DNA of 64,000 nucleotides from Verrucomicrobiota bacterium (GTDB lineage Bacteria > Verrucomicrobiota > Verrucomicrobiia > Verrucomicrobiales > Verrucomicrobiaceae). Positions within the stretch are counted from its first letter, which is position 1; each line of letters opens with the position of its first letter. The notes under the pieces are model-generated. The model was not told the origin of the DNA, did not search any database, and saw only the letters and a list, made by a program, of their open reading frames with translations. The position numbers and the translations under genes were made by a program. This document shows positions 771 through 63,192 of the stretch, one piece after another. The stretch lies in contig JANYCZ010000064.1 of NCBI GenBank assembly GCA_025360015.1, forward strand, positions 62,001 through 126,000, written 5' to 3'.

Positions 771-2252
<1,482 letters not shown>

Positions 2253-2282
2253 GATGCGATCAAGGGGGAAGACGACGCCGTC

Positions 2283-2306
2283 TTGACTCTCATGTCCGCA
2301 TGGACA
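2283..2306 (+). promoter_or_regulatory. Candidate promoter -35 with palindromic operator before the DUF433/DUF5615 pair
   Basis: TTGACT at 2283-2288 resembles a -35 box. Directly after it lies the perfect inverted repeat TGTCC-GCAT-GGACA (2293-2306), 11 bp before the ATG at 2317. A palindrome in the promoter spacer fits autoregulation, as is usual for toxin-antitoxin operons. No convincing -10 box was seen, so this is tentative. Confidence 0.35.
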
Positions 2307-2316
2307 ATCTTCTGCC

Positions 2317-2544: not shown

Positions 2545-2870
2545 AGTTTCTGGTGGACAATCAGCTGCCCACAGCTCTCGCCCGCTGGCTGAGTGCCAGA
2601 GGGCATGATGCTGTGCATGTTTTGGATCGCGGACAAGGACAGACTGATGATCGCCAGATCTGGGCTGAGGCTCTCGCTGAAAATCGAGTCATCGTTTCCA
2701 AGGACGAAGATTTTTTTATCCTGGCGACACGGCCTGGAGAACAGGGAAAGCTGCTATGGCTTCGTCTTGGCAACTGCCGCACCCAACACTTGCTGACCCA
2801 GCTCGAACAAATCTGGCCTTCGATCGAAACCGCATTGTCTTCAGATCAAAGAATTGTCGAAGTGCGCTGA
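2541..2870 (+). CDS. DUF5615 PIN-like protein, likely toxin
   Basis: A 109-residue protein that opens MKFLVDNQLPTALARWL, the standard start of the DUF5615 (Mut7-C-like PIN) family. Conserved acidic residues are visible at D6 and in the KDEDF motif at about 54-58, fitting a metal-dependent PIN nuclease core. The gene overlaps the DUF433 gene by 4 bp. The likely role is an RNase toxin inhibited by the upstream DUF433 protein. The family is poorly characterised, so catalytic activity should not be taken as proven. Confidence 0.85.
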   Translation: MKFLVDNQLPTALARWLSARGHDAVHVLDRGQGQTDDRQIWAEALAENRVIVSKDEDFFILATRPGEQGKLLWLRLGNCRTQHLLTQLEQIWPSIETALSSDQRIVEVR

Positions 2871-2991
2871 GCCGGAATTCGCTTTTCTGCTCAAGTCGCC
2901 ACCCTTGGGACCTTTTAACGACGCGCAGCACTTGCCCCGGTTGCACGCGCAAATCCGCTACCAATTCGCATAAAATCTTGTCAATGCACCA

Positions 2992-3014
2992 AAGATGAGA
3001 CAGCGTCTCATCTT
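2992..3014. terminator. Perfect 10-bp hairpin between the DUF5615 gene and the second sulfatase
   Basis: AAGATGAGAC (2992-3001), loop AGC, GTCTCATCTT (3005-3014). The stem is perfect. No long T-run follows (TTCTATTCC). It ends 19 bp before the sulfatase start at 3034, so it could be a terminator for the upstream pair, an operator, or an RNA hairpin in the sulfatase leader. Confidence 0.5.
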
Positions 3015-3033
3015 CTATTCCAACTGATCTTTC

Positions 3034-4722: not shown

Positions 4723-4737
4723 TCAAAAGGCTTCGCC

Positions 4738-4801
4738 GTCAAGAAGCTGCGCAGTCGAGAGCGTCAAGACGGCCACCTCTTGACGGCTTGACCTTCTTGA
4801 C
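4738..4801. repeat. Nested inverted repeats with TTGAC-type arms
   Basis: An outer pair GTCAAGAAG (4738-4746) and CTTCTTGAC (4793-4801) encloses an inner pair CGTCAAGA (4762-4769) and TCTTGACG (4778-4785). Both pairs are perfect. Three TTGAC units lie in the right half and another at about 4816. This can fold into a cruciform or act as a terminator after the sulfatase gene. The TTGAC units also resemble -35 boxes for the gene at 4881. Confidence 0.55.
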
Positions 4802-4880
4802 TAGCGCGCCGCGCCTTGACCTCCCATACGCAACTTTCCTCTGAAACTGCACTTTCAATGAGCGTTGTAATGTCACCACC

Positions 4881-6311
4881 ATGAGTGCCATCCAACCCGT
4901 CTCGTCCCGTCGTCAGTTCATTGCCCGCAGTGCCACCGCTGCCGCTGCTCTGGGATTTCCCGCCATCGTCAGTTCACGTTCGCCGAATGAAAAACTGAAT
5001 CTCGTTTTCATCGGGGTCGGCGGACGTGGAGCGGCGAACATCAAGGAGCTGACCGGCGTCGCACTCTACACGCCGCCGCGTGGCAAAGATGCCAAGCCCG
5101 ATGCGGGCGCACCACCTCCTGTCGTCAATCCGCGTGAAAACGTCGTCGCGCTGTGCGATGTGAATGGCGAGAACCTCGACCGCGCTGGTGCTGCGTTTCC
5201 CAAGGCGCAAAAGTTCCGCGACTTCCGCAAGCTTTACGACTCCCTCAGCGCGGGCGAGATCGACGCCGTCGTCATCAGCACCACCGAGCACACGCATGCC
5301 TATGCCACACTGCCTGCGCTGCTGATGAAAAAGCCAGTGTACTGTGAGAAGCCGCTCTCCCACAACGTGGCCGAAGCACGCTTCATCACTGAAGCAGCGG
5401 CCAGGGCCGGGGTCGTCACGCAGATGGGCACGCAGATTCACGGCATGCCGAACTACCGCCGCGTCGTCGAACTGATTCAAAGCGGTGCGATTGGCAAAGT
5501 GACCGAGGCGCACGTTTGTGTCTCACGCGCCTGGGGCTTGCAGAGCGAGGAAGACGCAAAGAAAAACGGGGACATCGTCCACGTCACCGAGAGGCCCACC
5601 GTTGCTGAAACACCGCCGCCGTATCTGGATTGGGATCTGTGGATCGGCCCTGCGCCGATGCGTCCTTACAACAGCGTTTATTTCCCCGGCCCCAAATGGT
5701 ACCGGTGGTGGGACTTTGGCAATGGCACCATGTCCGACCTCGGCAGTCATTGGAACGATCTGCCCTTCTGGGCGCTCAAGCTCGATGCTCCGCTCAGTGT
5801 CGAAGCCTTCGGCCCGCCTCCACATCCCGAGATCGCCCCGGCTTCCATGCACGCGGTCTATGAGTACGGCCCGCGTGGCGACATGCCCGCCTGCAAGCTG
5901 CATTGGCATCAGGGTGCCGACAAACCTGATGTCTGGAAGAACGATCCCTTCATCAGCAAGTGGAACAACGGCGTCCTTTTCATTGGCGACAAAGGCATGC
6001 TCCTCTCAGACTACGGCAAGCATGTCCTGCTCCCCGAGGCCACGTTCAAAGACTTCCAGGCGCCGAAACCTTTCATCGCCGACTCCCCCGGTCAGCATGC
6101 GGAATTCCTCGCGGCCATCCGCAACGGCACACCCACCGGCAGTCCCTTCAGCTACGCGGGTCCGCTCACCGAGGCCAACCACCTTGGCAACGTCGCCCAC
6201 CGCGCTGGTGGCAAAATCGTGTGGGATGCGAAGGCGATGCGGATCACGAACAACGAGGCGGCAAATCGGTTTTTGAGCCGTGTGCCACGTGAGGGGTGGA
6301 AGCTGGGGTGA
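4881..6311 (+). CDS. Gfo/Idh/MocA family oxidoreductase, Tat-exported
   Basis: A 476-residue protein with a twin-arginine signal ([18 protein letters not shown]) and an NAD(P)-binding Rossmann fold ([18 protein letters not shown]). The family motif CEKPLSHNV is present, and the C-terminal part has the usual alpha/beta dimerisation fold ([16 protein letters not shown]). An insert of about 30 residues rich in Pro and Gly sits after the first beta-alpha unit. It probably acts on a carbohydrate or polyol in the periplasm. It follows the sulfatase at 3034 in the same direction and may belong to the same saccharide-processing group. The start is preceded by CACCACC rather than a Shine-Dalgarno sequence. 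Confidence 0.9.
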
Positions 6312-6321
6312 GTCACAAGGA

Positions 6322-6444
6322 GCGGGACTTGCCAAGTCTCGGCCTGGAAAAAGTGAAAACTCTCTAAAACGGCTTGTCGGAAATTAAGATCATGAGGCAG
6401 CTGAGCTCCCTGCGCCCCCATCCCACGGCACTTGCCAAGTGCCG
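6322..6444. repeat. Paired REP-like palindromes in convergent intergenic region
   Basis: Two related palindromes share the core ACTTGCCAAGT. Copy one is CGGGACTTGCCAAGTCTCG at about 6324-6342 (one G/T wobble). Copy two is the perfect hairpin CGGCACTTGCCAAGTGCCG at 6426-6444. They lie about 100 bp apart between two convergent genes and probably act as terminators or as a REP-type mobile repeat. Confidence 0.5.
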
Positions 6445-6455
6445 CTTCTTGCCCT

Positions 6456-7712
6456 TTACGCCGCCACCATCTCCTCGCGCATCTTCCAGCGCTGCTCATG
6501 CGTGAGCAGGCTGCGGAAGAAGTCTTCCTCCTTCTTGGGCTCCTGTCCCGCTTCGACCGGCAGACTGAATTCGAGTTCTAGTCCGCGTGGCTCTAGATGA
6601 CGTGCCTCGGCGGTGCCTCCATGCAGATGCATGGTGACGTAGCAGGCCATCATGTTCACGCCAAAATCATCCGGCTTGCGGCTGCGGGTGTAGAAGGGGT
6701 CAAACAGATTCACGGGCTTGTCCGCGCCTTCCCACATGCCGGTATCACGCACATACATCACCACATGTGACTGACCTTTCGCATCGTGCCTGAGCTGTGC
6801 GCTGATGTGGATGCTGTCGCCAGGACTGAGGTGCGTGAGCTCCTCCATGAAGATCAAACGCCACATCTGGCGAAAGCGCGCGCCATGCACCATGACCGGC
6901 GGCAGGCTGGGATCGACCGCGACTTCGATCTGCAGATTCTTTTCCTTCATCTGCGGCGCAAACATGTCGAGCATCTCGCCAAGCACCGTGTGGAGATGAC
7001 ATTGATCCGCACGCTCCAGGCGCTTGGAATGAGAGGCCTCGGCCAGCCGGGCCAGCATGGACTGAATGCGCTCTAGCTGCGACTGCGCCTGATTTTGCAC
7101 ATCAATCCAGAACGAGGGATCACGCGGATGCGCACCGCCGATCTCCTCCATCAGCTTCATCGGAGCCAGATCAATGAAAGCGCGCACAACGGTGAGAGCA
7201 TTGCGCAGATGGTGGTTGAGCCCTTCCGCCAGAATGCCGAGTCCGGAAACTTTATCGGCAGACAGCATGTTGCGCACGGACTCCGCTTTTTCCACCAGCA
7301 GACGCTCGCGCTCGATGAGCGCATGGTAGTAATCCATCGCGTGCTTGATCACCACGCTCAGTTCATCCGGATCCCATGGCTTGTGCAGGTAGCGGAAGCA
7401 GCGGCCGGAGTTCACCGCATCCACCGCCGCCTGATAGTCCGTGTAGGCCGTGACGAGAATGCGCACCAGATTGGGATTGAGCTTGCGTGCATGCTCCATC
7501 AGCTCAATACCGCTCGGCCCAGGCATGCGCTGATCCGTGAGAAGCAGGCCGATCTGCGGCCCGTAATTTTGCAGGATGCGATAGCCATCCATCGCATTGT
7601 TGGCGACGTGAATGATGTACTCGTCACCGAAGATTTCTTTGAAGTAATGCAGCGCCTTCTCTTCGTCATCGACGTAGAGGATGTGGTAAGGCGATAGCAT
7701 GGGACTCGGCAT
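6456..7712 (-). CDS. Response regulator fused to a degenerate histidine kinase
   Basis: A 418-residue protein. The receiver domain (about 10-125) has the acidic pair in YVDDEE, phospho-acceptor D60 in TDQRMPGPSG and K111 in YLHKPWDP. A linker helix and a dimerisation/phosphotransfer-like segment follow, with an H-box-like motif EGLNHHLRNAL at about 163-173. The ATP-binding part keeps DTG but has lost both Asn of the N-box (RLIFMEELTHL) and the glycine-rich G2 loop (DDFGVNMMA). It is therefore probably a pseudokinase or regulatory partner. It lies 5 bp downstream of an intact sensor kinase in one operon. No DNA-binding output domain is present. Confidence 0.85.
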   Translation of the reverse strand: MPSPMLSPYHILYVDDEEKALHYFKEIFGDEYIIHVANNAMDGYRILQNYGPQIGLLLTDQRMPGPSGIELMEHARKLNPNLVRILVTAYTDYQAAVDAVNSGRCFRYLHKPWDPDELSVVIKHAMDYYHALIERERLLVEKAESVRNMLSADKVSGLGILAEGLNHHLRNALTVVRAFIDLAPMKLMEEIGGAHPRDPSFWIDVQNQAQSQLERIQSMLARLAEASHSKRLERADQCHLHTVLGEMLDMFAPQMKEKNLQIEVAVDPSLPPVMVHGARFRQMWRLIFMEELTHLSPGDSIHISAQLRHDAKGQSHVVMYVRDTGMWEGADKPVNLFDPFYTRSRKPDDFGVNMMACYVTMHLHGGTAEARHLEPRGLELEFSLPVEAGQEPKKEEDFFRSLLTHEQRWKMREEMVAA

Positions 7713-7717
7713 CAGAT

Positions 7718-9160
7718 TCAGGTGTTTGCAGGTTTCTTCAGGCTCAGCGTGAACTGCGTGTGGCTGCCTGCGGCGGTGTCGATCTTTACTTCGCCTTCCA
7801 TCTGCTGGATCATGCGGAAGCAGATGCTCAGGCCCAGGCCCATGCCCTGCCCCACCTGCTTGGTAGTGAAAAAGGGATCAAAGATCTTCGAGAGATTTTC
7901 CTTCGGAATGCCGGAACCATTATCCCGCACGATCAAATCAACGCCGTTCGCGGTTTCGCAGGCTTTGAGCCAAAGGGTCGGCTCAGGACGACCCGCCAGC
8001 GCGTCCAGGCTGTTCTGCACCAGATTGAGCAAAATCTGAATGAGGTAGTTTTCATCTCCCTGCGCGATGACGTCCGACGGGATTTCATCGACCAGCAGCA
8101 CGCCGCGGTCGCCGATCTCCTTGGCCAGCAGGCGCAGCGACTTGCGTGCGGTCTCCTGCAAACTCACCGGTCTGGAACCCCGATTTTCCGGATGCGCAAA
8201 AGTGCGCAGGTCCGACACGATGGCGGCCACACGGTCAATGCCCTCGCCAATGTCTTCGGCAATGCTGGTGAAGGTCTCGGCGATTTCAGGCGGCAGCACC
8301 TTGCCCTTTTTCTTGAGGAGGTAGATAGCCGACTTCACGTAGTTCAGCGGATTGTTGATCTCATGCACGATCCCGGCGCTGAGCCGGCCGATGGAGGCCA
8401 GCTTCTCGCTTTGATCCAGCTGGGCTTCCGTTTCACGCAGGCGCTTCAGCGTGGCGGTGAGTTCATCGTTGCGTGCGGCCAGTTCTTCGCGCTGATCTTC
8501 CACTTTGCAGCGGTTCGCGAATTCCCGCAGTCGGATCGCATGATGCTGACGGCTGCCGAAATAGAGCACCACACAGTTCAGCAGGATGAAGCCGGTGTTG
8601 TTGACGAAGATGCCCAGAGCCCGTGAGTCATTCAGATGGAGATTGGGAAGTGTGGCGGCGAAATAGGCCAGCACCACCAGGCCGAGCGTGATGCCGATCT
8701 CACGGAAGGTCCAATGGAACACAAAGGCCGTGGCCACGATGCACAGCGTCAGTCCGGCGTAGTAGCCGGAACCGGGATCACCGCTGAGGTAGATCATGAA
8801 GCAGATCATCAGCGCTGGCAGCAGCGGCAGGATGATGGGGTAGGCGCGGCAGTATTTCCGCCCGAGCGACCCATTCAACGCCAGCAGCAACGGTACGCAA
8901 CTCGCGGCACAGGCCAGACGCAGCACCAGAAACTGCCAGTAGCTGGCTGGATATGCCATCCAGTCGAGGAAACTGCACAGCGGTACGAGGACCATCACAA
9001 ACCAGGCTCCCATCCGCGCGTTGCGCAGATTGAGTTCCATCTGTTCCTGCTCAAAACGGTTGGGCGGAGGCACAATTCCATCTGAACCACCCCTAGGGGA
9101 GTGATCTGTGCTGGATGCGATCAGAGGCGAGCTGATCTCTGCCAGGGCGGCGAAAGACAT
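7718..9160 (-). CDS. Membrane sensor histidine kinase
   Basis: A 480-residue protein with about six hydrophobic segments between residues 50 and 205 and a short coiled coil (about 215-255). A HisKA domain carries H266 in SAGIVHEINNPLNYV. The HATPase domain is complete: N-box LIQILLNLVQNSLDAL, G1 DNGSGIP and G2 GQGMGLGLSIC. It should autophosphorylate and pass phosphate to the receiver domain of the product encoded 5 bp downstream. The signal is unknown. The N-terminal membrane part is not a recognisable named sensor domain, though it resembles other integral-membrane kinase sensors in layout. Confidence 0.88.
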   Translation of the reverse strand: MSFAALAEISSPLIASSTDHSPRGGSDGIVPPPNRFEQEQMELNLRNARMGAWFVMVLVPLCSFLDWMAYPASYWQFLVLRLACAASCVPLLLALNGSLGRKYCRAYPIILPLLPALMICFMIYLSGDPGSGYYAGLTLCIVATAFVFHWTFREIGITLGLVVLAYFAATLPNLHLNDSRALGIFVNNTGFILLNCVVLYFGSRQHHAIRLREFANRCKVEDQREELAARNDELTATLKRLRETEAQLDQSEKLASIGRLSAGIVHEINNPLNYVKSAIYLLKKKGKVLPPEIAETFTSIAEDIGEGIDRVAAIVSDLRTFAHPENRGSRPVSLQETARKSLRLLAKEIGDRGVLLVDEIPSDVIAQGDENYLIQILLNLVQNSLDALAGRPEPTLWLKACETANGVDLIVRDNGSGIPKENLSKIFDPFFTTKQVGQGMGLGLSICFRMIQQMEGEVKIDTAAGSHTQFTLSLKKPANT

Positions 9161-51106: not shown

Positions 51107-51904
51107 ATGATCCTCGACGCCTCCTGCCACTTAGAATATGAGACCCGCGAAGAGATCTCTGCCATCTTCATGCTGCGCCCCCGCAGTGGTTGGGCGCAGT
51201 GGATCATGCAGGAGGACTTTGTTCTCACTCCCCGCGTCCCCGTCGTCGAATACTCGGATCTCTACGGCAACATCTGCCAGCGCATCGTGATGCCCAAAGG
51301 CAGCTTTCATTTCTCCATGCGCTGCAGGGCATGGGCGCCAAATGATCTCGACAGCCAGCCGCTCGCAGCGCTGCAAACCGTCGCCCAATTGCCGGTAGAA
51401 GTGCTGCACTACCTCCTGCCCAGCCGCTACTGCCAGTCCGACAAGCTCGGCAGCATCGCCTCCTCCATCGTGGGCACCACGCCGCACAATCACCATCAGA
51501 TCATGCGCATCCGTACCTGGATCCATGAAAACATCACGTATGAACGGGGTGCCAGTGATTCCTCCACCTCCGCTCTCGAGACGGCGCACACACGCCGTGG
51601 CGTCTGCCGGGATTTCGCCCATCTGGGCATTGCCCTCTGCCGGGCCATCAACGTGCCGGCACGCATGGTGGTGGGTTTCGTTCATAACCTGGATCCGATG
51701 GACCTGCACGCCTGGTTCGAAGCCTACATCGGCGGGCGCTGGTACACCTTTGATGCCACGGAGGACAAGCCCGGCGGTGGTCGCATCGTCGTGGCCTATG
51801 GCCGCGATGCCGCAGACGTGGCGCTGGTTTCACTGTTTGGCAGCTTTACCTGCACCAACATGCAGGTCACCGTCGAACACGTGGTGGAAACCAACGAGAA
51901 ATAG
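51107..51904 (+). CDS. Transglutaminase-like family protein (Anbu-associated type)
   Basis: 265 residues, no signal peptide. The N-terminal part is a beta-rich transglutaminase N-domain (LEYETREEISAIFML), and the catalytic core has Cys in TRRGVCRDFAHLGIALC, His in DLHAWFEAYIG and Asp in YTFDATEDK. It is followed 36 bp later by the Anbu-type gene. In many bacteria these two sit in a cluster with a circularly permuted ATP-grasp ligase and an alpha-E protein, which are missing here. It is probably a cytoplasmic peptidase or amide-forming enzyme of that system. Confidence 0.87.
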   Translation: MILDASCHLEYETREEISAIFMLRPRSGWAQWIMQEDFVLTPRVPVVEYSDLYGNICQRIVMPKGSFHFSMRCRAWAPNDLDSQPLAALQTVAQLPVEVLHYLLPSRYCQSDKLGSIASSIVGTTPHNHHQIMRIRTWIHENITYERGASDSSTSALETAHTRRGVCRDFAHLGIALCRAINVPARMVVGFVHNLDPMDLHAWFEAYIGGRWYTFDATEDKPGGGRIVVAYGRDAADVALVSLFGSFTCTNMQVTVEHVVETNEK

Positions 51905-51940
51905 CCTCAGCCACCGCAGTCCACCTCCACCACGCCTCCC

Positions 51941-52711
51941 ATGTCCTACTGCCTCGGCATCAATACAGCGGACGGCCTCGTTCTCGCTTCAGACTCACGC
52001 ACCAGCTCCGGCGCGGATCAGGTGAACACCTGCCAGAAGATGCATCAGTTCGTCATTCCCGGAGAGCGCATCTTCGTCATTCTCACCACCGGCAGCCTGT
52101 CGCTCAGCCAGTCAATCATCACGCTCCTGCGGCAGGATTTCGATGCCGGCAAAGGACTGGCCGCCGTGGCCAACATGTATGAGGCCGCGCGCGTGCTCGG
52201 CAGCATGGTGCGGCGCATCGCCGATCTGGATCGGGCAGCTCTGGAAAAGGACAATTTCCGTTTCAATGTGAACCTTCTCCTCGGCGGCCAGATCAAGGGC
52301 GCACCTCACGAACTCTACATGGTCTATCCTCAGGGCAACCCGCTGCGCTCCACCCCGGACTCGCCCTACCTGCAGATCGGCGAAAGCAAATACGGCAGGC
52401 CGATTCTCGATCGCGGCATCAGCCATCACAGCACGACCATCCATCAGTCCGCCAAATACGCCCTGCTCTCGCTGGAGGCCACCATGCGCTCCAACTCCAC
52501 CGTGGGACCGCCCGTGGACCTCCTGCTCTACAATCGCGATGACCTGCGCGTCTCCCACTACCGCCGCTTCTACAGTCATGATCCCGATTTCATCGAGATT
52601 CACAGCTCATGGGAGAAAGCCCTGCGCAACGCCGTCCATCAGCTCCCCGACCTCCGTTTCGATTGCGGCGACATCGCCCCCGGCATCGAGCCTCCCACCT
52701 GGCAGCCATAG
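51941..52711 (+). CDS. Anbu-type proteasome-related Ntn hydrolase
   Basis: 256 residues opening MSYCLGINTADGLVLASDSR, the signature of Anbu (ancestral beta subunit) proteins, with N-terminal Ser2 as nucleophile after Met removal; many homologues have Thr or Ser here. SLLLGGQIKGAPHELYMVYP-like family features are seen at about 110-130 (NLLLGGQIKGAPHELYMVYP). Anbu forms helical or ring-like assemblies of proteasome-beta fold, with little proven protease activity. It lies in an apparent operon with the transglutaminase-like gene. No proteasome alpha subunit or ATPase is nearby. Confidence 0.88.
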   Translation: MSYCLGINTADGLVLASDSRTSSGADQVNTCQKMHQFVIPGERIFVILTTGSLSLSQSIITLLRQDFDAGKGLAAVANMYEAARVLGSMVRRIADLDRAALEKDNFRFNVNLLLGGQIKGAPHELYMVYPQGNPLRSTPDSPYLQIGESKYGRPILDRGISHHSTTIHQSAKYALLSLEATMRSNSTVGPPVDLLLYNRDDLRVSHYRRFYSHDPDFIEIHSSWEKALRNAVHQLPDLRFDCGDIAPGIEPPTWQP

Positions 52712-54556: not shown

Positions 54557-55015
54557 TCACTCCTCGATGGTGGGATTGTCGATTCCTAAGGCGTTCGCCA
54601 GATCCGTAAAATGCTCCTGCTCCTGGGCGATGATCTTGCGCAGCACTTCGCTCAGCGCATACTCGCCCATCGCTTCCGCCTGGCGGATTCTCTCGCGGTA
54701 GTTGCGGATGGTCTCCATTTCATTGTCCATGTCAAAGCGCAGCATGTCCTCCGGCTTATCAGACATCTTCACCGCCTTCGGCACCGTCGTCGGCGTGCCA
54801 TTGAAGTAATCGATCTGTTTTGCAATCAAGATTGCATGGCTGAGCTCCTCCGACGCATGAACGCTCAGTTCTTTCGCAATGTTCTGATATTCAGCGCCTT
54901 TCAGCATCTGGCTGTAAACAACATAGGCAATAACGGCCTGAAATTCGCGGGCGAGATCTTCATTCAAAAGATCGATCATTTCCTGACGGCTGGGTGTGGG
55001 AGAGGGCGTTTTCAT
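54557..55015 (-). CDS. Ferritin-like domain protein
   Basis: 152 residues from the ATG at 55015 (MKTPSPTPSRQEMIDLLNED). A four-helix ferritin-like bundle with conserved metal ligands: EDLAREFQAVIAYV, HASEELSHAILIA and IAQEQEHFTDLANALG (E-x-x-H pairs). It is likely a diiron protein or iron-storage/oxidative-stress protein of the bacterioferritin-like type. Longer in-frame starts upstream overlap the divergent yihY leader and lack similarity. It could link to the heme/iron locus downstream at 56-63 kb, but this is speculative. Confidence 0.83.
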   Translation of the reverse strand: MKTPSPTPSRQEMIDLLNEDLAREFQAVIAYVVYSQMLKGAEYQNIAKELSVHASEELSHAILIAKQIDYFNGTPTTVPKAVKMSDKPEDMLRFDMDNEMETIRNYRERIRQAEAMGEYALSEVLRKIIAQEQEHFTDLANALGIDNPTIEE

Positions 55016-55157
55016 GGGAAAGGTTGGTTGCCTCCAAACCTTCGTATTATGGCGGGGGCATGGATGTGCAAAGTTTGGAATCGGGGTGAGAAACTTCACC
55101 ATCCACCGGGAGCGGCTCACGCGAAATACAGGCATGCACGCCGTCCTGCTCGGTGTC

Positions 55158-56105
55158 ATGGACGAACACCACCGAATATCTCCGCGCGTGACGAAATCAT
55201 TCTTCCAGCTGCTCAAAGAAACCTTCATCGCATGGAATGCACACAAAGCGCCCAAGATGGGTGCCGCGCTGGCCTATTACACGACCTTTTCCATGGCCCC
55301 GATGGTGATGCTCGCCGTCGGCGTCATCGGTTTGGTGGTCGCGCAGGCTGATGCACAGGCGTCCATCGTCTCACAGCTATCCACCATCATGGGCAGTGAA
55401 GGCGGAACCATTGCGGAAGCCATCCTGACGCATTCAGCGCAGCAGCAGACGGGGCTGTGGGCCACTCTCACTGGGCTGGTCGTGCTGCTGGTGGGAGCCT
55501 CCGGTGTGTTCGCCGAGTTGCAGGATTCCTTGAACATCATCTGGGAAGTCCCCCCTCGCGAGCGGCCTTGGCGGACGCTCATCCAGGAACGCCTGCTCTC
55601 CTTCGTCATGGTCTTTGTCCTCGGCTTTTTGATGCTGGTATCCCTGCTGCTCTCAGCGGGCATTGCCGCCCTCGGCGCAGGGATGAAAAGCTGGGCACCC
55701 GGCTTTGAGGCCGTCTGGGAAAGCGCGAACTCGCTGGTGTCATTTGTGGTCATGACGCTGCTCTTTGCAGCAATCTACCGCTTCATGCCCGATGTGCGCA
55801 TTGCCTGGCGGGATGTCTGGACTGGCGCGGCATTGACCACCGCTTTGTTCATCCTGGGAAAATACCTCCTCGGCATCTACATCGCGCACAGCGCCTTCAC
55901 CTCCATGTATGGCGCTGTCGGCTCGCTGGTCATCCTGCTTGTGTGGGTCTTTTACTCGGCGCAGATCTTCTTCTTTGGTGCCGAGTTCACCTGCGTTTTT
56001 GCCCGCCGAAAGGGCAGCCACCGCTCCCGGCCGGAAAGTCAGATCACCGCCACAGCTCACGCCCAGGCTTCGCCTGAGGCGCAGCCACCTTTCAGCCTCC
56101 GATAA
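55158..56105 (+). CDS. YihY/BrkB family inner-membrane protein
   Basis: 315 residues from the ATG at 55158; ATG at 55134 is an alternative. Six membrane segments occur between about residues 25 and 275 (for example GAALAYYTTFSMAPMVMLAV and LWATLTGLVVLLVGASGVFA). The YihY motif FAELQDSLNIIWEVPP is intact. The C-terminus is cytoplasmic and basic. Function is uncertain; older ribonuclease-BN labels for this family are wrong. It converges with the DUF2149 gene. Confidence 0.88.
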   Translation: MDEHHRISPRVTKSFFQLLKETFIAWNAHKAPKMGAALAYYTTFSMAPMVMLAVGVIGLVVAQADAQASIVSQLSTIMGSEGGTIAEAILTHSAQQQTGLWATLTGLVVLLVGASGVFAELQDSLNIIWEVPPRERPWRTLIQERLLSFVMVFVLGFLMLVSLLLSAGIAALGAGMKSWAPGFEAVWESANSLVSFVVMTLLFAAIYRFMPDVRIAWRDVWTGAALTTALFILGKYLLGIYIAHSAFTSMYGAVGSLVILLVWVFYSAQIFFFGAEFTCVFARRKGSHRSRPESQITATAHAQASPEAQPPFSLR

Positions 56106-56122
56106 TTTGAACAAATGGCACT

Positions 56123-56449
56123 TCACTTCTTCTGCTTGTCACGGACGTAGATGATCTCGCCGGACTTAAGCCGGTAGGCCGTACCAAGGCGCTCCCCTTC
56201 ACCGCTCTTGCTGGCGTGGCTTTCCTGGAAGCGCTCGATTTTGGTGCGCTCCACTCCGATGCTTTCCACCGTGGGGGATCTGTCTGCCGGTGCATCGTTA
56301 TGCGCGGTGGGGGTGGGCTTGGGCAGGTTGAAATAGCTGACCACAGCCAGGAGCAGGGCCGCGGCAAAGGCGATCCACACATCAAATAGATTGATAAGTC
56401 CGCTGGCCGGATCGTCCCCTTCGGAGTCGTCCCACAGGCGCTTCTTCAT
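56123..56449 (-). CDS. DUF2149 membrane protein of the hmu-like locus
   Basis: 108 residues: an acidic start (MKKRLWDDSEGDDPASGLIN), one membrane segment (LFDVWIAFAAALLLAVVSYF) and a periplasmic tail with YRLKSGEIIYV. This is the DUF2149 family, known almost only next to CobN-like and MotA/ExbB-like genes. It overlaps the ExbB-like gene by 4 bp. Its shape (one TM helix plus periplasmic domain) resembles ExbD, so an ExbD-like partner role is plausible. It is the last gene of the four-gene operon. Confidence 0.85.
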   Translation of the reverse strand: MKKRLWDDSEGDDPASGLINLFDVWIAFAAALLLAVVSYFNLPKPTPTAHNDAPADRSPTVESIGVERTKIERFQESHASKSGEGERLGTAYRLKSGEIIYVRDKQKK

Positions 56450-57045
56450 GGGAGAGCGGGCCGGTTGGCGTTGGTAAAGAGGTGCTCCAGCGTGCTCAGG
56501 TCACGCTGATACCAGTTTTTGCGCACAAGATTCATCGTATACGAGCAGCACCCAAGCAGCACGCCGACCACTGTGGCAGTGAAGGCGACCACGAGATTGC
56601 TGGAGAGTGTGGCCAGATCTCCGGAGGCCAGCCCTGTCAGCGCCGGGCCCAGCGGAATGAGCGTGCCCATGAGTCCGAGCATGGGCGCAATACGTGTCAT
56701 CCATGTGAGGCGGGACAACGCGGTGGCGGTCTCGATCTCCAGATCCACCAGGCAATGCGACAGATCCCCCGCCCCGCCCCATTGGGCCAGGAGCTGGTGC
56801 AGCCGCGCTGGCAGGCCGGTCGTGGCGGTGCTAAGAATGTGCAGCAGCCGCACCTGATCCCCGCCTTCCCCACGTGCGCGCCGGAGATCTGCCAGGATGG
56901 CCACGATTTGACGACGCCCCAGCCACTCACGTAGGAGTCCGCCCAGCAGCATGGCGCTCCAAGCGACGAGGATGATGATGGCTGCCAGCGTGGGCAGCAG
57001 CACCGCCTCGGAGATCAATGAAAGGAGTTGTTCGAGCAGCTTCAT
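56446..57045 (-). CDS. MotA/TolQ/ExbB-type proton channel protein of the hmu-like locus
   Basis: 199 residues from the ATG at 57045, which overlaps the CobN-like stop by 4 bp. Membrane segments are at about 10-32, and 110-165 with the family core RIAPMLGLMGTLIPLGPAL and VVAFTATVVGVLLGCC. It should use proton motive force to energise the receptor or the CobN-like protein, together with DUF2149. This gene corresponds in position to the ExbB-like gene of Bacteroidota hmu loci. Confidence 0.88.
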   Translation of the reverse strand: MKLLEQLLSLISEAVLLPTLAAIIILVAWSAMLLGGLLREWLGRRQIVAILADLRRARGEGGDQVRLLHILSTATTGLPARLHQLLAQWGGAGDLSHCLVDLEIETATALSRLTWMTRIAPMLGLMGTLIPLGPALTGLASGDLATLSSNLVVAFTATVVGVLLGCCSYTMNLVRKNWYQRDLSTLEHLFTNANRPALP

Positions 57046-60000
57046 GAAGTGGAACCAGCTTTTCTGAAGAAGCCGACCATGATCAGAAGCACAGCTGCGG
57101 CGCCAATCAACCAGACGAATGTGTTCCACGCAGGTTGCAGCACGGTCCCTTCCTGCTGCGGCTTGCTTTCAGAGGGCGGTGTTTGCTCCTTGGTTTCACC
57201 GATCTGCGGACCGCTTACTTTCTCAACCTTCGCATCCGGTGCAGCGGCGCTTTGCTGGAGCTTTGCCTTCATGTCCTGCGCCAGTGCCGCCGCTTCCTGA
57301 TCTCCTGGCGCAGTGAGCTTGGCGCTGACAAAGTCAGCCATCCGCGTGTTCCCCCCGCTGACGAGACCTCCTGAGTCGCCATGCGCCTTCACCGAAGTCG
57401 CGTAGAGTTTCGCCAAGGTCTGCAACTGCTCGGGCGTGGCCTTCCACAGGTCTTTGCGTGCAGCCTCGATCAGCGTGGCGCTGATTTCCTGCATGGCATG
57501 GGGTGACACGCGCTCAAACCACTCGGCGAGCTGCAGCTTGTGCTTGTCTTTAACGAGCACGTCATAGACCTCGTCCCACGTCTCCTGGGTGACGCTTTCC
57601 CGCCGCGTCACGGACCAGCCAAAGGTGTTCTTCACCAGTTCGGCTATGTGCCCTGCCCCGGCGTAGTCATGCGATTTCATGCCTTCAAGCCAGCGGCGGT
57701 TCAGCAGTTCCGCCTTCAGATTGGCAGCCAGCACTTCCTCGAAGTCGCGCACCCGCGCACCGCTGGGATCGCGCACATCTGAAATGACTGCGGCAGGCGA
57801 TTTGCCGGTGACTTTTTTCACCGCCATGCTCAGGCCGCCCAGATACTCATAGGCGTGGTGATTGGACAACTGGCTGGTCATGTTCGAGGCCCACACACGC
57901 AGCACGGTGTCCGTGTTTTGCAGTGCCTCTTCATACAAGCCGTCCACCTTCTCGCCCCAGGTGTCCTGAGTGTAAACAAAGCTCATATTGTCGGTGTACA
58001 CGTCCGTGATCTCATCGTCCTTGTCCCACACGCCGGAGCGCGGCACGAGGTAGAGGATGTGTGTGCCGCTCATGTTTCCCGGCTTGGTGCCAAAGATGCG
58101 CGCCGCAGCATACTGATCTGCACGCGCACCGGAGTAACCACGCTGCAACAGGCGCGCATGCGTGGCCGCGACAGCCTCACGCACCGGATTCGCGCTCTCA
58201 GGAGCAGATGCAGCAAGCCGCACAGCTTTGTCGAGCAGTGCCACGCGCGTGGGAAAGTTTTCTTTGTACTGACCTCCCATGGCAATGAAGACCTCCACCC
58301 GTGGCCTTCCCAGCTCTTCAGCAGAAATGAGTTCCACATCGATGACGAGGTTGTTCTGATTCCAGATCGGCCGCACCCCGAGCAGCGCGAGAATCTGCCC
58401 TTCCATGACGCCAAAGTCGCGCATCGTTTCCATGCCATTGAGATCGAGCGCGATCTTCTTCGGCTTTCTCGTCCGCAGCAGTTCATCCACCAGCTTGCGC
58501 GCTGTTTCCCAAGCGGGCCGAGTCGGAATCTCCTCGGGATTGAGCGAGTACAAATTGCGCCCGCCAGGAGCCGTCGCCGGATTACGGATGGGGTCCGGCC
58601 CCGGACCCGGCTCGATGTAATGCCCGCCCAGAGCCGTCAGCAAGCCCGTGTGCTCTTTGCCCGCATCCCGCAGGCGGGCGCGCACATCGCGCGCAAATTC
58701 CACATCCTTCTGCAACTCCGGTGTCATGCGCATGCCGGCCGGCGGCCCACTCTCCAGCGCGGCGCGCAGAAACTCCGCAGCCTTGGTGCGATCCTGCTGC
58801 TTGTGCTCGACTGCCGCACGCTGCAGCCCACGAGTCGCGGCCAGATGATCCAGCAGCGGCTCACCCAGAATCTGCACCAGATACGGCACCATCTCCGCTT
58901 CATGCGGCCCTTCTCCCAGCACATGAAGCCGCAAGGGCGTGCACGACTCAAACAGATTGTGCAGATGCTCATCAAGGCGCGTGACGGCCGCGTCATCCAG
59001 CACGCCCCCCCCGCTGCCGTGCAGTCGTGCATCTCTCGCCTGCTGGCTGACACGCTTGCGGTACTCCTCTTTGAGCAGTCCATCCTCCAGCGTGCGGAAC
59101 TTGTGAATGTCTTCATGCAGGTTCTTGAATTCGTCATCGAGCCCAGCGGCGAGCGTGGGCGGCGGCAGATGATCCACCAATGCGGCGTAGGAGCGGCGGC
59201 GAGCCAGCGTGGCCTCGCCCAGATTGTCCGTGATCCACAAATCAATAACCGGCAGACGACCCACGCAGATGTCGCTCCAGCAGTCTTTGGAAAGCCCGGC
59301 CTCCTTGCCCGGCAGCAGCTCCAGCGTTCCGTGCGTGCCCCAGTGGACAATGGCATCGGCATGATACTGCTCATCCAGCCACCAGTAGAAGGCGAGGTAG
59401 TTGTGCGGCGGCGGCACATCGCGGTTGTGCAGCAGGTTTTCGTCCTGCTTCTCGCCGCGCTCCGGCTGTGGCATGAGGGTGAGATTGCCCATCTCCAGCT
59501 TGGGCAAAACGATGTGCGGCTCGCCGTTGCGCTTCACCACCATGATGCGTCCCGGCGGCGGGCCAAACTTCTCCACCATCGTCTTCCGTGCTGCCTCGCT
59601 CAGCTTCGTATTGAACCACTGCTCATACTGATGCAGCGGCACCAGCACCGGCTGCGATTCATCTACGAGCTTTTCCAGATCTCCCTGCACCCATGGGCCG
59701 ATGTTCCGCCCGCCGCGCTTCATCGCGTCAATCAGCGCCGCCGTGCTGGACGGGGTGTTCTTCAGCGTGAAGCCCGCCTCCTGCATGCGCGGCAGAAAGC
59801 GCATGAAGCTCTCCGGCGCATCCAGAAAGCCACCCGTGGGACTTCCGCGCATGAGGTCGTCCTGGCCCAGCCCTTTGTTGTAATAGATAAGTGCTATTTT
59901 TTTCTCCGCATTGCTTTTGCGCTTCAGTGCCGCCCAGCGCGCTGCACGTGCGGCGAAGGCCTCGATGCGATCTGGAATGGGCTCATGCAGGCGGAAACCC

Positions 60001-60995
60001 TGGATATTCTCCTTCAAACCGCCGACGACTACGGGCTCCAGCGTGCCCCAGGACTCCTGCAGCGCCATGAACATGCCCACATCGCGGTGTGAGAGACCGC
60101 GGGGATCGCGCAGCCATTCCTCATTCGTGGTGGCAAGCATGGAGATGGGCCGCAGATAGGGCGCATCCAGTTCTTTCAGCAAGGCAGTGCTCTGCCACAT
60201 CGCGCCATGACGATCTTCGATGAGGATTGTGGGACTGGCAGCGCGCGTGAGTTTCGTGACTTGTTCTTCACGGTCGCCAAACACCGGAACCACATTGAGC
60301 CCCTGTTTTTCCAGCGCGACGATCTGTGCGTCGATGACCTTCAGATCATGCGTGATCCAAAACGACTGCTGCAGGAGAAGCACCGCCACTGAGGCACCTT
60401 CCACCCAGCGCTGCTTCCCGCGCTTGAAAGCGATAAACTCGCCGATGTCTGCAAAGGCATCCTCGCGCGCGGGATCGTAGTAGCCTGCATCGGGTATGAG
60501 CACCGGCGGCTCGATCTCACCTGCCGTGGCGCAATGCTTCACCATGCAGTAGCGGATCAGCCGCCGCACATTCACCGTGCCATTGGGCCGCCAGTAAGCC
60601 GGCACCGCTTCGTCTTTCAGCAGCAGCCCCGCCTTGTCGAGATCCATCTGGCTGCCGCGCGCATCCAGCGGGATCACACGCTGCGCGGGATTGATTTCAC
60701 GCGCCTGCTTGAGCCGCTGCGTGAGTGCGGGCGCTTGATCCGCTTCCAGGTTTAGTACAAAGATGAGCCCGAAGCGTGAAGCCTGAGCCGCCGGCTGCGT
60801 TTCATTGAAAGTCTGCCCTCTGAAAAACTCCGCATGGATCCTGTTTTCACGGCACGCGGCCTCCACCTGCGGCATGGAGCGGTCCCACACGCCAATGAAG
60901 GCCCAGTTCAGCGGCTCTGCGGCGCGCAATGGCCCTGCCAGCATCAAGCAGCAGCCGGCCCACAAGAAAAAACAGCGCATGAGTTTGAGGTGCAT
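57042..60995 (-). CDS. Exported CobN/HmuS-like chelatase
   Basis: 1317 residues from the ATG at 60995 (MHLKLMRCFFLWAGCCLMLA); ATG at 60980 also possible. The signal peptide ends near LRAAEP and a C-terminal membrane anchor is seen (FVWLIGAAAVLLIMVGFF), so the large domain is periplasmic. CobN family core HWGTHGTLELLPGKEAGLSK is near residue 550. Ordinary CobN is cytoplasmic and inserts cobalt; exported CobN-like HmuS of Bacteroidota hmu loci removes iron from heme. The order receptor, this gene, ExbB-like, DUF2149 matches. It begins 1 bp after the receptor stop. Confidence 0.85.
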   Translation of the reverse strand: MHLKLMRCFFLWAGCCLMLAGPLRAAEPLNWAFIGVWDRSMPQVEAACRENRIHAEFFRGQTFNETQPAAQASRFGLIFVLNLEADQAPALTQRLKQAREINPAQRVIPLDARGSQMDLDKAGLLLKDEAVPAYWRPNGTVNVRRLIRYCMVKHCATAGEIEPPVLIPDAGYYDPAREDAFADIGEFIAFKRGKQRWVEGASVAVLLLQQSFWITHDLKVIDAQIVALEKQGLNVVPVFGDREEQVTKLTRAASPTILIEDRHGAMWQSTALLKELDAPYLRPISMLATTNEEWLRDPRGLSHRDVGMFMALQESWGTLEPVVVGGLKENIQGFRLHEPIPDRIEAFAARAARWAALKRKSNAEKKIALIYYNKGLGQDDLMRGSPTGGFLDAPESFMRFLPRMQEAGFTLKNTPSSTAALIDAMKRGGRNIGPWVQGDLEKLVDESQPVLVPLHQYEQWFNTKLSEAARKTMVEKFGPPPGRIMVVKRNGEPHIVLPKLEMGNLTLMPQPERGEKQDENLLHNRDVPPPHNYLAFYWWLDEQYHADAIVHWGTHGTLELLPGKEAGLSKDCWSDICVGRLPVIDLWITDNLGEATLARRRSYAALVDHLPPPTLAAGLDDEFKNLHEDIHKFRTLEDGLLKEEYRKRVSQQARDARLHGSGGGVLDDAAVTRLDEHLHNLFESCTPLRLHVLGEGPHEAEMVPYLVQILGEPLLDHLAATRGLQRAAVEHKQQDRTKAAEFLRAALESGPPAGMRMTPELQKDVEFARDVRARLRDAGKEHTGLLTALGGHYIEPGPGPDPIRNPATAPGGRNLYSLNPEEIPTRPAWETARKLVDELLRTRKPKKIALDLNGMETMRDFGVMEGQILALLGVRPIWNQNNLVIDVELISAEELGRPRVEVFIAMGGQYKENFPTRVALLDKAVRLAASAPESANPVREAVAATHARLLQRGYSGARADQYAAARIFGTKPGNMSGTHILYLVPRSGVWDKDDEITDVYTDNMSFVYTQDTWGEKVDGLYEEALQNTDTVLRVWASNMTSQLSNHHAYEYLGGLSMAVKKVTGKSPAAVISDVRDPSGARVRDFEEVLAANLKAELLNRRWLEGMKSHDYAGAGHIAELVKNTFGWSVTRRESVTQETWDEVYDVLVKDKHKLQLAEWFERVSPHAMQEISATLIEAARKDLWKATPEQLQTLAKLYATSVKAHGDSGGLVSGGNTRMADFVSAKLTAPGDQEAAALAQDMKAKLQQSAAAPDAKVEKVSGPQIGETKEQTPPSESKPQQEGTVLQPAWNTFVWLIGAAAVLLIMVGFFRKAGSTS

Positions 60996-60996
60996 T

Positions 60997-63192
60997 TTAA
61001 AAGGTGAGACGACCGCCAACGACCACGTTGAAGCCCGCTGCCTGGCGCTGCTGCTGGGCATAAGCCTGGCGGTATTTGGTGTCGAATACATTGTTCAGAT
61101 TGAGCGTGAGTGAGAAGGAACGGCTCCCCTCTTCCCAGACCTTCACGCCCGTGCGGATGTTCGTCACGAAGAAGCTGGGGATTTGAAAGTTGGAATTGAT
61201 CGGCGGATTGTTCGTCGCATTGGGTGAACCCAAAGCGGGATCGACGGAAAAGCCGGCGTCGATTTCATCACTCGTATTGTGACGGATCAGCGGCCCGGCC
61301 CACAGTTCGGAAAGCTCCACCCAGCATTTCTTTTGCTCGGATTCAAAGCGCACGCCAAAGTTGCCATACAACGGCGGTATGAAGCGCAGCGGCACATTCT
61401 GCGACTGGTTCTGGCCGTAGGTCCAGGTGGTGTTGTTAAAGATAGTGAAATGCCGGTCCAAGTCGTAGCTGAGCGCGAATTCCACGCCGGTGATGTAGCC
61501 TTGTGCTGAGTTGGAATTGCGAGTGGCATTGTAGGTCACTCCACCAATGACGACGGTGCCCGAGGTCGTGGAGGTGATGAGGTCCGACAGCTTCGTGAGA
61601 TACCCGGTGAGCGAGCCTTTGAGCCGTGCCGTGTGAACCCGGGCACCGATTTCATAGGTGATGCTCTTCTCCGGATTGACGGCCAAACTGGGCAACGAGG
61701 CGGTGAGGCTCGAAAACACGGGCGTGCCGGCACTCAGCAGATCGCTGTAAGTGGGCGTGCGATAGCCCGTGGCGATGTTGGCCACCAGGTCAAAGGAACT
61801 TGTGGCTTGATACACGGCCCCCACGTTCCAGGTCACAGCGTTCCAGTACTTGTTCGCGGCGAGATCGCTGACCGTGTACCCGGCGCCTGGAATCACATCC
61901 AATGGCTCGGGGTGTGAGTGCAGATGCGTGTTTTCATAACGCGCCCCCATGTTGAGCAGCAGCTTGTCCGTGGGTTTGAGATCAAGCGTGACGAAGGTGT
62001 CAAAGACCTCGTAAATGCCATCCGGCGTGATGCCAGCAGGCACTGAGGAGGTGGTCAGCCCGGTGGCGATCACCTGGGTGGAGAGCCGCTGTGAGGAGGA
62101 GAGATTTTCGTGCCGGTAGTCCATGCCATAAACCAGACGCGTATTCTTTTTCTTCCCGAAGGTGGCCGCGTTTTGAATGCCCACGCCCCAGACATCCTGA
62201 TCCGAATTGGTGATGGTGTTGTTGAACAGGGTGGCGGTCTGCACGCGCCGCTCGCGCAGCTGGTCGTAGTACTGGTAGTAGCCGTAGACCTTGAGCTCAT
62301 CACTCAGAAAGCCCAGCTCTTTGGCGGTGTAGTCCATCTTCACAATGCCACGGCGTTCCAGCGGGCTGTAGATGCGCGGCACGCCGTTCGCATTGAGCTG
62401 CGACTGCACGTAGCTGTTTACATCCGTGCGCTCATTGCCCACCCAAGACACTCGAAAAACATGACCTTTGACCGGCTGGAACGCGAGATTGGCATATCCG
62501 CCGCTGGTGTGAAAACTGGTGGGCTGCAGCGGCCCTGTGGAACTATGGTAGTTGCCCGCATCCTGGGCCGACCACCCGGCGGCAAAGGCCCACATGTCAT
62601 TGCTCGCATGCATATTGGCCGCATTGGTGAACTCCGTGTTGTTGCTGCCGTAGCGCGAGTACACATCCCCGCCTACGTTCAGGCTTTCCGAGAACTCACC
62701 ATGTTTGGAAAACACATTGATCACACCGCCGATGGCGTCGCTGCCATACTGCACCGACCCGGCGCCGCGCACCACTTCCATGCGCCCCACGGCATCAATC
62801 GGAAACTGGTTAAAGAAAGGATTGGGGCCGGAAAAAATTCCCCCGTTGTTGATTCGTACACCGTCCCAGAGATACACCAGCTTGTTGCCCATCTGGCCGC
62901 GAATGATCGGCGAGCCCTGCGCTGCCACCTGGTTCACCCAGACGCCCGGCTGCTCCTGCAGCATCTCCGAAGGGCTGGTGGCCTGGAAACGTTCAATGCG
63001 CTTCTGCTCCACCACATTGGTGGACTGAGGCAATGTTCTTTGGTCCTGGGCCGTTCTGGAAGCCGTAACGACCATTGTGGGCAGTTCATCCTCTTCATCC
63101 TGCTCTGGTTTTTCAGCCGCCTGCAGATGAACGGCCCAAAGCACGGTCAAGGAAAGCGCCAGCCTGGAAAATCGAAAGTGTGTGAGAACCAT
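60997..63192 (-). CDS. TonB-dependent outer-membrane receptor of the hmu-like locus
   Basis: 731 residues with a signal peptide (cleavage near LQAAEK), a TonB-box-like TMVVTAS and a plug domain (SEMLQEQPGVWVNQVAAQGS, VEVVRGAGSVQYGSDAIGG-type motif at about 125-145). The C-terminal barrel closes with VVVGGRLTF. A GYRTPTYSDLL segment corresponds to the FRAP-box position of heme receptors, with a later NPEK. It likely imports heme or another metallotetrapyrrole. It heads the operon and has a palindrome and a hairpin in the leader. Confidence 0.9.
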   Translation of the reverse strand: MVLTHFRFSRLALSLTVLWAVHLQAAEKPEQDEEDELPTMVVTASRTAQDQRTLPQSTNVVEQKRIERFQATSPSEMLQEQPGVWVNQVAAQGSPIIRGQMGNKLVYLWDGVRINNGGIFSGPNPFFNQFPIDAVGRMEVVRGAGSVQYGSDAIGGVINVFSKHGEFSESLNVGGDVYSRYGSNNTEFTNAANMHASNDMWAFAAGWSAQDAGNYHSSTGPLQPTSFHTSGGYANLAFQPVKGHVFRVSWVGNERTDVNSYVQSQLNANGVPRIYSPLERRGIVKMDYTAKELGFLSDELKVYGYYQYYDQLRERRVQTATLFNNTITNSDQDVWGVGIQNAATFGKKKNTRLVYGMDYRHENLSSSQRLSTQVIATGLTTSSVPAGITPDGIYEVFDTFVTLDLKPTDKLLLNMGARYENTHLHSHPEPLDVIPGAGYTVSDLAANKYWNAVTWNVGAVYQATSSFDLVANIATGYRTPTYSDLLSAGTPVFSSLTASLPSLAVNPEKSITYEIGARVHTARLKGSLTGYLTKLSDLITSTTSGTVVIGGVTYNATRNSNSAQGYITGVEFALSYDLDRHFTIFNNTTWTYGQNQSQNVPLRFIPPLYGNFGVRFESEQKKCWVELSELWAGPLIRHNTSDEIDAGFSVDPALGSPNATNNPPINSNFQIPSFFVTNIRTGVKVWEEGSRSFSLTLNLNNVFDTKYRQAYAQQQRQAAGFNVVVGGRLTF

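What the first reader, a model, noticed from the sequence alone, without database searches (positions are those of the whole stretch)
56123..63192. hmu-like locus: TonB receptor, exported CobN-like chelatase, ExbB-like channel and DUF2149 in one coupled operon
Seen: four minus-strand genes with 4-bp overlaps or a 1-bp gap; the CobN-like protein has both a signal peptide and a C-terminal membrane anchor, so it works in the periplasm. Known: in Bacteroidota, hmuYRSTUV loci pair a TonB heme receptor with a CobN-like HmuS that dechelates heme; the accessory ExbB-like and DUF2149 proteins occur there. Inferred: this locus is a heme- or metallotetrapyrrole-dechelating uptake system in a probable Verrucomicrobiota genome, without an HmuY hemophore or a DUF2162 gene. 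No CobS/CobT or ChlD/ChlI partner is present, so classic cobalt insertion is unlikely.
Basis: partly seen in the sequence, partly recalled or inferred. Interest (0 to 1): 0.75.

Follow-up and report, generated by a model that had tools for sequence, protein, structure and literature searches.

The report
Exported heme-dechelatase-like metal scavenging operon
A Verrucomicrobia genome carries a four-gene operon that probably imports a metal-containing ring molecule, most likely heme, and strips out the metal outside the inner membrane; it belongs to a separate branch close to the known heme dechelatase HmuS.

Summary
In detail: four tightly packed minus-strand genes encode a TonB receptor, an exported, membrane-anchored CobN-like protein, an ExbB-like channel and a DUF2149 protein. 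The CobN-like protein is not B12-synthesis CobN (common clade rejected, AU p 2e-7; no CobT found in the genome), but it is not inside HmuS either. It lies in a clade of Verrucomicrobiota, Lentisphaerota, Planctomycetota and one gamma MAG, beside HmuS in two trees and unresolved in a third. It keeps HmuS His254, His538, Glu577, His1209 and Glu1212, but lacks Met79, the methionine-rich insertion, HmuY and DUF2162. The receptor groups nearer heme/hemoglobin receptors than BtuB. Best reading: a periplasmic metallotetrapyrrole-dechelating uptake system, probably for heme iron. The metal is unproven: the same four-gene layout is Zur-regulated in Pseudomonas aeruginosa, and relatives sit under B12 riboswitches or in a hydrogenase-maturation cluster, so DUF2149 (HmuV) is not diagnostic of heme. 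ExbB-DUF2149 also accompanies CobN-like genes in archaea and planctomycetes with no TonB receptor detected nearby, which suggests that the pair may power the dechelatase itself. New variant of a known kind.

The parts
60997..63192 (-). TonB-dependent receptor, heme/hemoglobin-receptor-like, 731 aa
   Evidence: Pfam; NCBIfam; tree
57042..60995 (-). Exported, C-terminally anchored CobN-like protein (putative dechelatase), 1317 aa; His263, His555, Glu594, His1047 and Glu1050 match HmuS His254, His538, Glu577, His1209 and Glu1212
56446..57045 (-). ExbB-like proton channel subunit, 199 aa; Thr128 and Thr158 conserved
56123..56449 (-). DUF2149 (HmuV-like, ExbD-like topology), 108 aa; Asn20 and Asp23 at the start of the one membrane helix
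63256..63270 (-). Palindrome GGACAATTTTTGTCC upstream of the receptor gene, kept as GGACGAATTTTGTCC or GGACGATTTTTGTCC in L079, L080 and L084; possible operator, regulator unknown

Best explanation
A metallotetrapyrrole scavenging operon. The receptor brings a metal-loaded ring, most likely heme (about 60%), across the outer membrane. The exported, anchored CobN-like protein binds it in the periplasm and removes the metal between two conserved histidines (555 and 1047), running a class I chelatase in reverse as HmuS does. Freed Fe(II) would enter by FeoB, which the genome has. The ExbB-like and DUF2149 proteins supply proton-motive energy, either to the receptor through TonB (the published assignment for HmuU/HmuV) or directly to the dechelatase. 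Shown: gene layout, export features, placement outside cytoplasmic CobN, conserved catalytic residues, patchy distribution. Inferred: direction of reaction, substrate, metal and energy coupling.
For: PDB phmmer: HmuS 9d26 494 bits, ChlH 366, CobN 355. Foldseek with a pLDDT 86.5 model: HmuS E 3.6e-74, CobN 3.9e-63, ChlH 2.8e-54. PVC clade (100*) joined to the HmuS clade with 99* (137 rows) and 97* (52 rows). His254, His538, Glu577, His1209 and Glu1212 equivalents kept in 9 of 9 window-clade proteins; the His1209/Glu1212 pair is in 8 of 8 Bacteroidota hmu proteins but in 0 of 5 true CobN and 0 of 13 methanogen rows. Receptor nearer heme receptor models. FeoB present. Ferrochelatase not found in this genome or in 14 other same-genus genomes and hemE not found, so tetrapyrroles from outside may matter.
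Against: Met79 (0 of 9), the methionine-rich insertion, Ser1067 (1 of 9), Gln1198 and Trp1202 (0 of 9) are not kept. The His1209/Glu1212 pair also occurs in 9 of 14 PA1923-like proteins, one of them (L152) behind a Zur-like box, so it does not tell iron from zinc. Joining the PVC clade to the PA1923-like clade is not rejected (AU p 0.077). VIA-align ranks CobN (Z 49.7) over HmuS (41.6 and 42.2). The receptor lacks the histidine that I recall between FRAP- and NPNL-like motifs (the heme receptor L192 lacks it too). A B. fragilis double mutant in two CobN-like BtuS proteins grew worse on heme iron but still made PPIX (PMC6460266, passages). The genome also has a heme oxygenase family gene, another route to heme iron.
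Confidence: 0.6

Rival explanations
1. A zinc (or other non-iron metal) scavenging system like P. aeruginosa PA1922-PA1925, taking the metal from a tetrapyrrole or another metallophore in the periplasm.
For: Same gene content as PA1922-PA1925, which rose 45- to 147-fold in a znuA mutant behind a predicted Zur site (PMC4542158, passages) and whose promoter binds Zur (PMC8531726, passages). Kinship with the PA1923-like clade not rejected (p 0.077). A related Stenotrophomonas locus has GTTATACTATAAC upstream of its receptor genes (Zur consensus recalled).
Against: No Zur-like box near the window gene (best match 5 mismatches). Larger trees join the PVC clade to HmuS (99*, 97*). The PA1922-like receptors of L152 and L143 score best with CirA-type models and group by BtuB; the window receptor does not. 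PA1923 itself was not available for the tree.
Confidence: 0.2
2. A cobalt or nickel tetrapyrrole system (B12-like or hydrogenase-linked), the BtuS sense of the family.
For: Trichlorobacter L032 has two cobalamin riboswitches just upstream of its operon; Runella L039 lies between hypF and hypCDE.
Against: Those relatives carry Asp-Asp at 1208-1209 (4 of 4 rows of their group); the window clade has His-His-Glu (9 of 9). No riboswitch in the window or in 7 window-type loci. Receptor not BtuB-like by NCBIfam scores or tree.
Confidence: 0.08
3. A cytoplasmic-type cobaltochelatase CobN of B12 synthesis that merely lies beside a receptor gene.
For: Pfam and NCBIfam models of CobN match; VIA-align ranks CobN first.
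Against: Clade with true CobN rejected, AU p 2.35e-07. C-terminal hydrophobic segment in 8 of 9 window-clade rows and 0 of 5 true CobN. Under every NCBIfam CobN cut-off. No CobT. No cob genes among the 7 flanking window genes scanned.
Confidence: 0.02

Closest known systems
HmuS and the hmuYRSTUV operon of Bacteroidota (PDB 9d26; PMC12583661: abstract, four sections and passages seen)
   Same: TonB receptor, exported anchored CobN-like protein, ExbB-like and DUF2149 proteins; catalytic His538, Glu577, His1209, Glu1212 and heme ligand His254 equivalents
   Different: Separate clade; no Met79, no methionine-rich insertion, no HmuY, no HmuT/DUF2162; His-His-Glu where HmuS has Asp-His-Glu; other receptor branch
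Zur-regulated PA1922-PA1925 of Pseudomonas aeruginosa (PMC4542158, PMC8531726: passages seen)
   Same: Receptor, CobN-like, ExbB/ExbD-like and hypothetical (DUF2149, name recalled and from a search listing) in one operon
   Different: Other receptor type and, in larger trees, another CobN-like clade; no Zur box found in the window
BtuS family of CobN-like proteins (Rodionov 2003, cited in PMC6460266: passages seen)
   Same: Exported, membrane-anchored CobN-like proteins distinct from CobN and ChlH
   Different: The B12-riboswitch-controlled relative L032 has Asp-Asp-Gln at the metal site; the window has His-His-Glu and no riboswitch

Membership tests
HmuS heme dechelatase | Falls inside the HmuS clade | tested here: not met
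   Own PVC clade beside it; relation unresolved in 22 rows
HmuS heme dechelatase | Catalytic His538 with Glu577, and His1209 with Glu1212 | tested here: met
   9 of 9 window-clade rows
HmuS heme dechelatase | Heme ligand His254 | tested here: met
   9 of 9; note only 4 of 8 Bacteroidota hmu rows have it
HmuS heme dechelatase | Heme ligand Met79 | tested here: not met
   0 of 9; also only 3 of 8 Bacteroidota hmu rows, but 17 of 17 Verrucomicrobial HmuS-like rows
HmuS heme dechelatase | Methionine-rich insertion (about 120 residues) | tested here: not met
   163-197 residues where HmuS has 350; also short (181-190) in 4 of 8 Bacteroidota hmu rows
HmuS heme dechelatase | hmuY and hmuT (DUF2162) in the operon | tested here: not met
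   No relative in the window or ten window-type loci; four abutting genes only
HmuS heme dechelatase | NADH-dependent conversion of heme to PPIX and Fe(II) | not testable with these tools
   Needs a bench assay
Exported CobN-like (BtuS/HmuS-type) superclade | Groups apart from cytoplasmic CobN and BchH; membrane-anchored | tested here: met
   100* branch of 114 rows and 42 rows; AU p 2.35e-07; C-terminal segment
Cytoplasmic cobaltochelatase CobN | Inside the CobN clade, with CobS/CobT partners | tested here: not met
   (CobT only; CobS and ChlI/ChlD not searched genome-wide)
Zur-regulated PA1922-25 type | Same CobN-like clade and a Zur box | tested here: inconclusive
   AU p 0.077 does not reject kinship; no Zur-like box (consensus recalled); PA1923 itself not in the tree
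ExbD (for DUF2149) | Sequence homology to ExbD/TolR | tested here: inconclusive
   hhalign probability 1.1 with a thin 5-row ExbD profile, though it aligns the conserved Asp; no ExbD model hit; PMC10100974 calls HmuV an ExbD homolog (passages)

The most novel reading that the evidence does not exclude
ExbB-like plus DUF2149 is a dedicated proton-driven motor for periplasmic class I (de)chelatases, in place of the cytoplasmic AAA+ partners (CobS/CobT, ChlI/ChlD), and not, or not only, a TonB energiser; and the family is a general metal-extraction module whose metal follows a site triad (His/Glu for iron or zinc, Asp/Gln for cobalt or nickel). Support: the pair lies near CobN-like genes in 12 of 34 archaeal loci (no outer membrane) and 14 of 14 planctomycete loci, with no TonB receptor detected near any of these 26; Trichlorobacter and a Lentisphaerae locus of the window type carry a separate canonical ExbB-ExbD-TonB set close by; purified HmuS was restricted to 1-2 turnovers (PMC12583661 section 11). 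Against: window-type locus L071 has a tonB gene directly before the receptor, which suits a TonB role; HmuS makes some PPIX without HmuU/HmuV; 22 of 34 archaeal loci show no such pair in the DNA held (some at contig ends).
Probability: 0.35. Interest if true: 0.8.

Novelty: new variant of a known kind. Interest (0 to 1): 0.55.

Why it matters
[quoted passage not shown] This finding adds a separate lineage across PVC bacteria with the same catalytic residues but other accessory parts, beside zinc-, B12- and hydrogenase-linked relatives. The machinery therefore looks like a general way to strip metals from tetrapyrroles. It also questions the published view that HmuV (DUF2149) is diagnostic of heme transport (PMC10100974) and makes the energy-coupling question testable.

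Tried and rejected
Regulon search: the palindrome GGACAATTTTTGTCC is exact only once in this genome, and near matches are at or below the control counts in most of four genomes, so it names no metal; it resembles a Fur-type 15-mer with 3 mismatches (consensus recalled), too weak to use. Rfam: no riboswitch in the window or 7 window-type loci. Conserved neighbours of the window clade: only a beta-lactamase-family gene shared with L080 and small sets shared by L080 and L084. The AU test on 52 rows did not finish; repeated on 22 rows with the simpler LG+G4 model. DUF2149 model: mean pLDDT 66, not searched. A ferritin-like gene at 54557 was not counted as iron evidence: it lies behind an opposite-strand BrkB-family gene and has no relative in the fetched flanks of other loci. 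Paper searches: Verrucomicrobia with CobN, heme and TonB-dependent, 0 papers; CobN, chelatase, ExbB, proton motive force and periplasm, 4 papers (passages read in two of them, the other two listing only), none seen to propose the motor; DUF2149/DUF2162, 5 papers (passages read in one). Subscription journals are mostly not held. PMC9431628 was seen as a listing only.

Rows dropped: ORFs under 1000 aa or 300 bits and ten duplicate loci were left out of the 137 rows. The active-site alignment left out rows of seven methanogen loci (121 of 137 rows kept), and the groups counted are chosen subsets: 17 of 23 Verrucomicrobial HmuS-like rows, 13 methanogen rows, 14 proteobacterial rows; planctomycete rows L093, L114, L129 and L139 are in no group. 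Receptor detection rests on a few phmmer queries within about 4 kb, so absence is an underestimate (only 1 of 5 Bacteroidota loci scored one).
Full report
OBSERVATION. The four genes are present as described: receptor 63192-60997, CobN-like 60995-57042, ExbB-like 57045-56446, DUF2149 56449-56123, with a 1-bp gap and two 4-bp overlaps. Pfam confirms each family. All four are under purifying selection against L080 (dN/dS 0.057 to 0.083). The window lies in a 6.6 Mb assembly (G000), 96.9% complete, whose only PF02514 match is this gene.

DISTRIBUTION. Of 288 sampled genomes of the phylum, PF02514 matches in 37 and DUF2149 in 31; 30 of the 31 are also in the PF02514 list (my comparison of the two listings). 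The three same-genus and three same-family genomes in that sample have neither. The order receptor, CobN-like, ExbB, DUF2149 is kept in L079-L085 and L071.

PHYLOGENY. In a 137-row FastTree (it warns of long branches) and a 52-row IQ-TREE mixture tree the window protein lies in a PVC clade (100*) outside cytoplasmic CobN and BchH, joined to the HmuS clade with 99* and 97*. The HmuS clade holds Bacteroidota hmu proteins, Verrucomicrobial proteins that mostly come from ExbB-DUF2149-CobN operons, and a few planctomycete proteins. A 22-row tree leaves the split of PVC, HmuS and the rest open. AU tests there reject the PVC clade joined to true CobN (p 2.35e-07) but not joined to the PA1923-like clade (p 0.077). 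So a place beside HmuS is favoured, not proven.

ACTIVE SITE. HmuS numbering was mapped from 9d26; residue roles are from PMC12583661 (passages, section 22). Window-clade rows keep His254, His538, Glu577, His1209 and Glu1212 in 9 of 9. The triad at 1208, 1209, 1212 is His-His-Glu in 9 of 9 window-clade rows; Asp-His-Glu in 8 of 8 Bacteroidota hmu and 17 of 17 Verrucomicrobial HmuS-like rows; Asp-Asp-Gln in 3 of 5 true CobN (the others Asn-Asp-Gln and Asp-Gly-Gln); Asp-Asp-Gln in 8 and Asp-Asp-Ser in 5 of 13 methanogen rows; Asp-His-Glu in 9 and Asp-Asp-Gln in 5 of 14 PA1923-like rows; Asp-His-Asp in 2 of 2 BchH; Lys-Tyr-Tyr in 11 of 13 planctomycete and Lentisphaerae relatives. Met79 (0 of 9), the methionine-rich insertion, Gln1198 and Trp1202 are missing in the window clade. 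The rows in each group are chosen, not all rows.

STRUCTURE. A model of 1196 residues (mean pLDDT 86.5, pTM 0.85) matches HmuS first by Foldseek (E 3.6e-74, CobN 3.9e-63) but CobN first by VIA-align (Z 49.7 against 41.6 and 42.2 for HmuS). The fold shows the superfamily, not the substrate.

RECEPTOR. TIGR01785 and TIGR01786 (heme) score 217 and 203 bits against 126 for the B12 receptor model, all below cut-off. Of the 25 listed best plasmid relatives, all under 30% identity, 10 are annotated hemoglobin/transferrin/lactoferrin family receptors and none as a B12 receptor; 350 more were not listed. In a 30-row tree the window-type receptors form a clade with an Emticicia receptor (99*), in a wider group with three heme-type receptors and two others (92), apart from BtuB; several branches are long and nine forks are open. 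No histidine lies between the FRAP- and NPNL-like motifs (motifs recalled), but the heme receptor L192 lacks one too. Against PDB chains BtuB and PhuR tie (83.1 and 82.8 bits).

GENOME CONTEXT. FeoB and a heme-oxygenase family gene are present. Ferrochelatase was not found here nor in 14 other same-genus genomes (2 of all 22 genomes searched had it, both of other families), and hemE was not found here. The classical heme pathway therefore seems incomplete; an alternative route was not searched.

REGULATION. A palindrome GGACAATTTTTGTCC lies upstream of the receptor gene and is kept in three close relatives, but it is a single-copy exact site in each of the four genomes and near matches are not above control. 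No Zur-like box and no riboswitch was found, so regulation does not name the metal.

WIDER FAMILY. The module is not confined to heme. PA1922-PA1925 of P. aeruginosa is Zur-regulated (passages). Stenotrophomonas L152 has the Zur-like box GTTATACTATAAC (consensus recalled); 16 other loci scanned had none within one mismatch. Trichlorobacter L032 has two cobalamin riboswitches just upstream, and Runella L039 lies between hypF and hypCDE. ExbB and DUF2149 lie near the CobN-like gene in 53 of 80 loci (12 archaeal, 41 bacterial); a receptor was detected near 18 of the 53, in 0 of the 12 archaeal and 0 of 14 planctomycete ones. ExbB Thr128 is kept in 116 of 116, Thr158 in 101 of 116, and DUF2149 Asn20 in 117 of 117 and Asp23 in 116 of 117, archaeal members included. 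Published work assigns HmuU and HmuV to energising HmuR through TonB and calls HmuV diagnostic of heme transport (PMC10100974, passages). The archaeal and planctomycete clusters do not fit that view and suggest a motor acting on the chelatase. Against it stands L071, with a tonB gene directly before its receptor.

VERDICT. The finding is real and its interpretation right in kind, but this is a separate clade close to HmuS and not an hmu locus. Heme iron is the likeliest substrate (about 60%), zinc the main rival (about 20%).

Noticed in passing
L087 6698-7723, L090 6678-7718, L086, L091, L094, L099, L156 (planctomycetes): Directly before the CobN-like gene, where window-type operons have the TonB receptor, these loci have a DUF1559 protein with a type IV pilin-like N-terminal methylation motif (Pfam-checked in L087 and L090). 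A pseudopilin-like protein may take the receptor's place.
   Followed up: partly
L086-L091, L094, L099, L102, L156, L072-L074: Planctomycete and some Lentisphaerae relatives have Lys-Tyr-Tyr in place of the metal-site His-His-Glu in 11 of 13 rows, so their reaction or substrate may differ.
   Followed up: partly
L039 (Runella slithyformis plasmid) 1119-9153: Receptor, DUF2162-like, ExbB, DUF2149 and CobN-like genes lie inside a hypF-hypCDE hydrogenase maturation cluster: a possible nickel version.
   Followed up: no
L032 (Trichlorobacter lovleyi plasmid) 1185-1651: Two cobalamin riboswitches in tandem just upstream of a receptor-DUF2162-ExbB-DUF2149-CobN operon, beside bzaF.
   Followed up: no
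G000 and 14 same-genus genomes: No ferrochelatase found in any of the 15, and no hemE in G000: heme auxotrophy or another heme route in this genus.
   Followed up: partly
L035, L037, L128 versus L106, L135, L136: In Bacteroidota hmu proteins the two heme ligands seem to change together: GMG with His254, or GRG with Met at 254.
   Followed up: no
L105, L108, L115, L116, L117, L123, L134 (methanogens): Two or three exported CobN-like genes in tandem in one locus.
   Followed up: no
window 54557-55255 (-): Ferritin-like gene downstream of the operon on the same strand, behind an opposite-strand BrkB-family gene; no relative in the fetched flanks of other loci.
   Followed up: partly
window 51107-52711 (+): A transglutaminase-like gene followed by a proteasome-family gene.
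   Followed up: no
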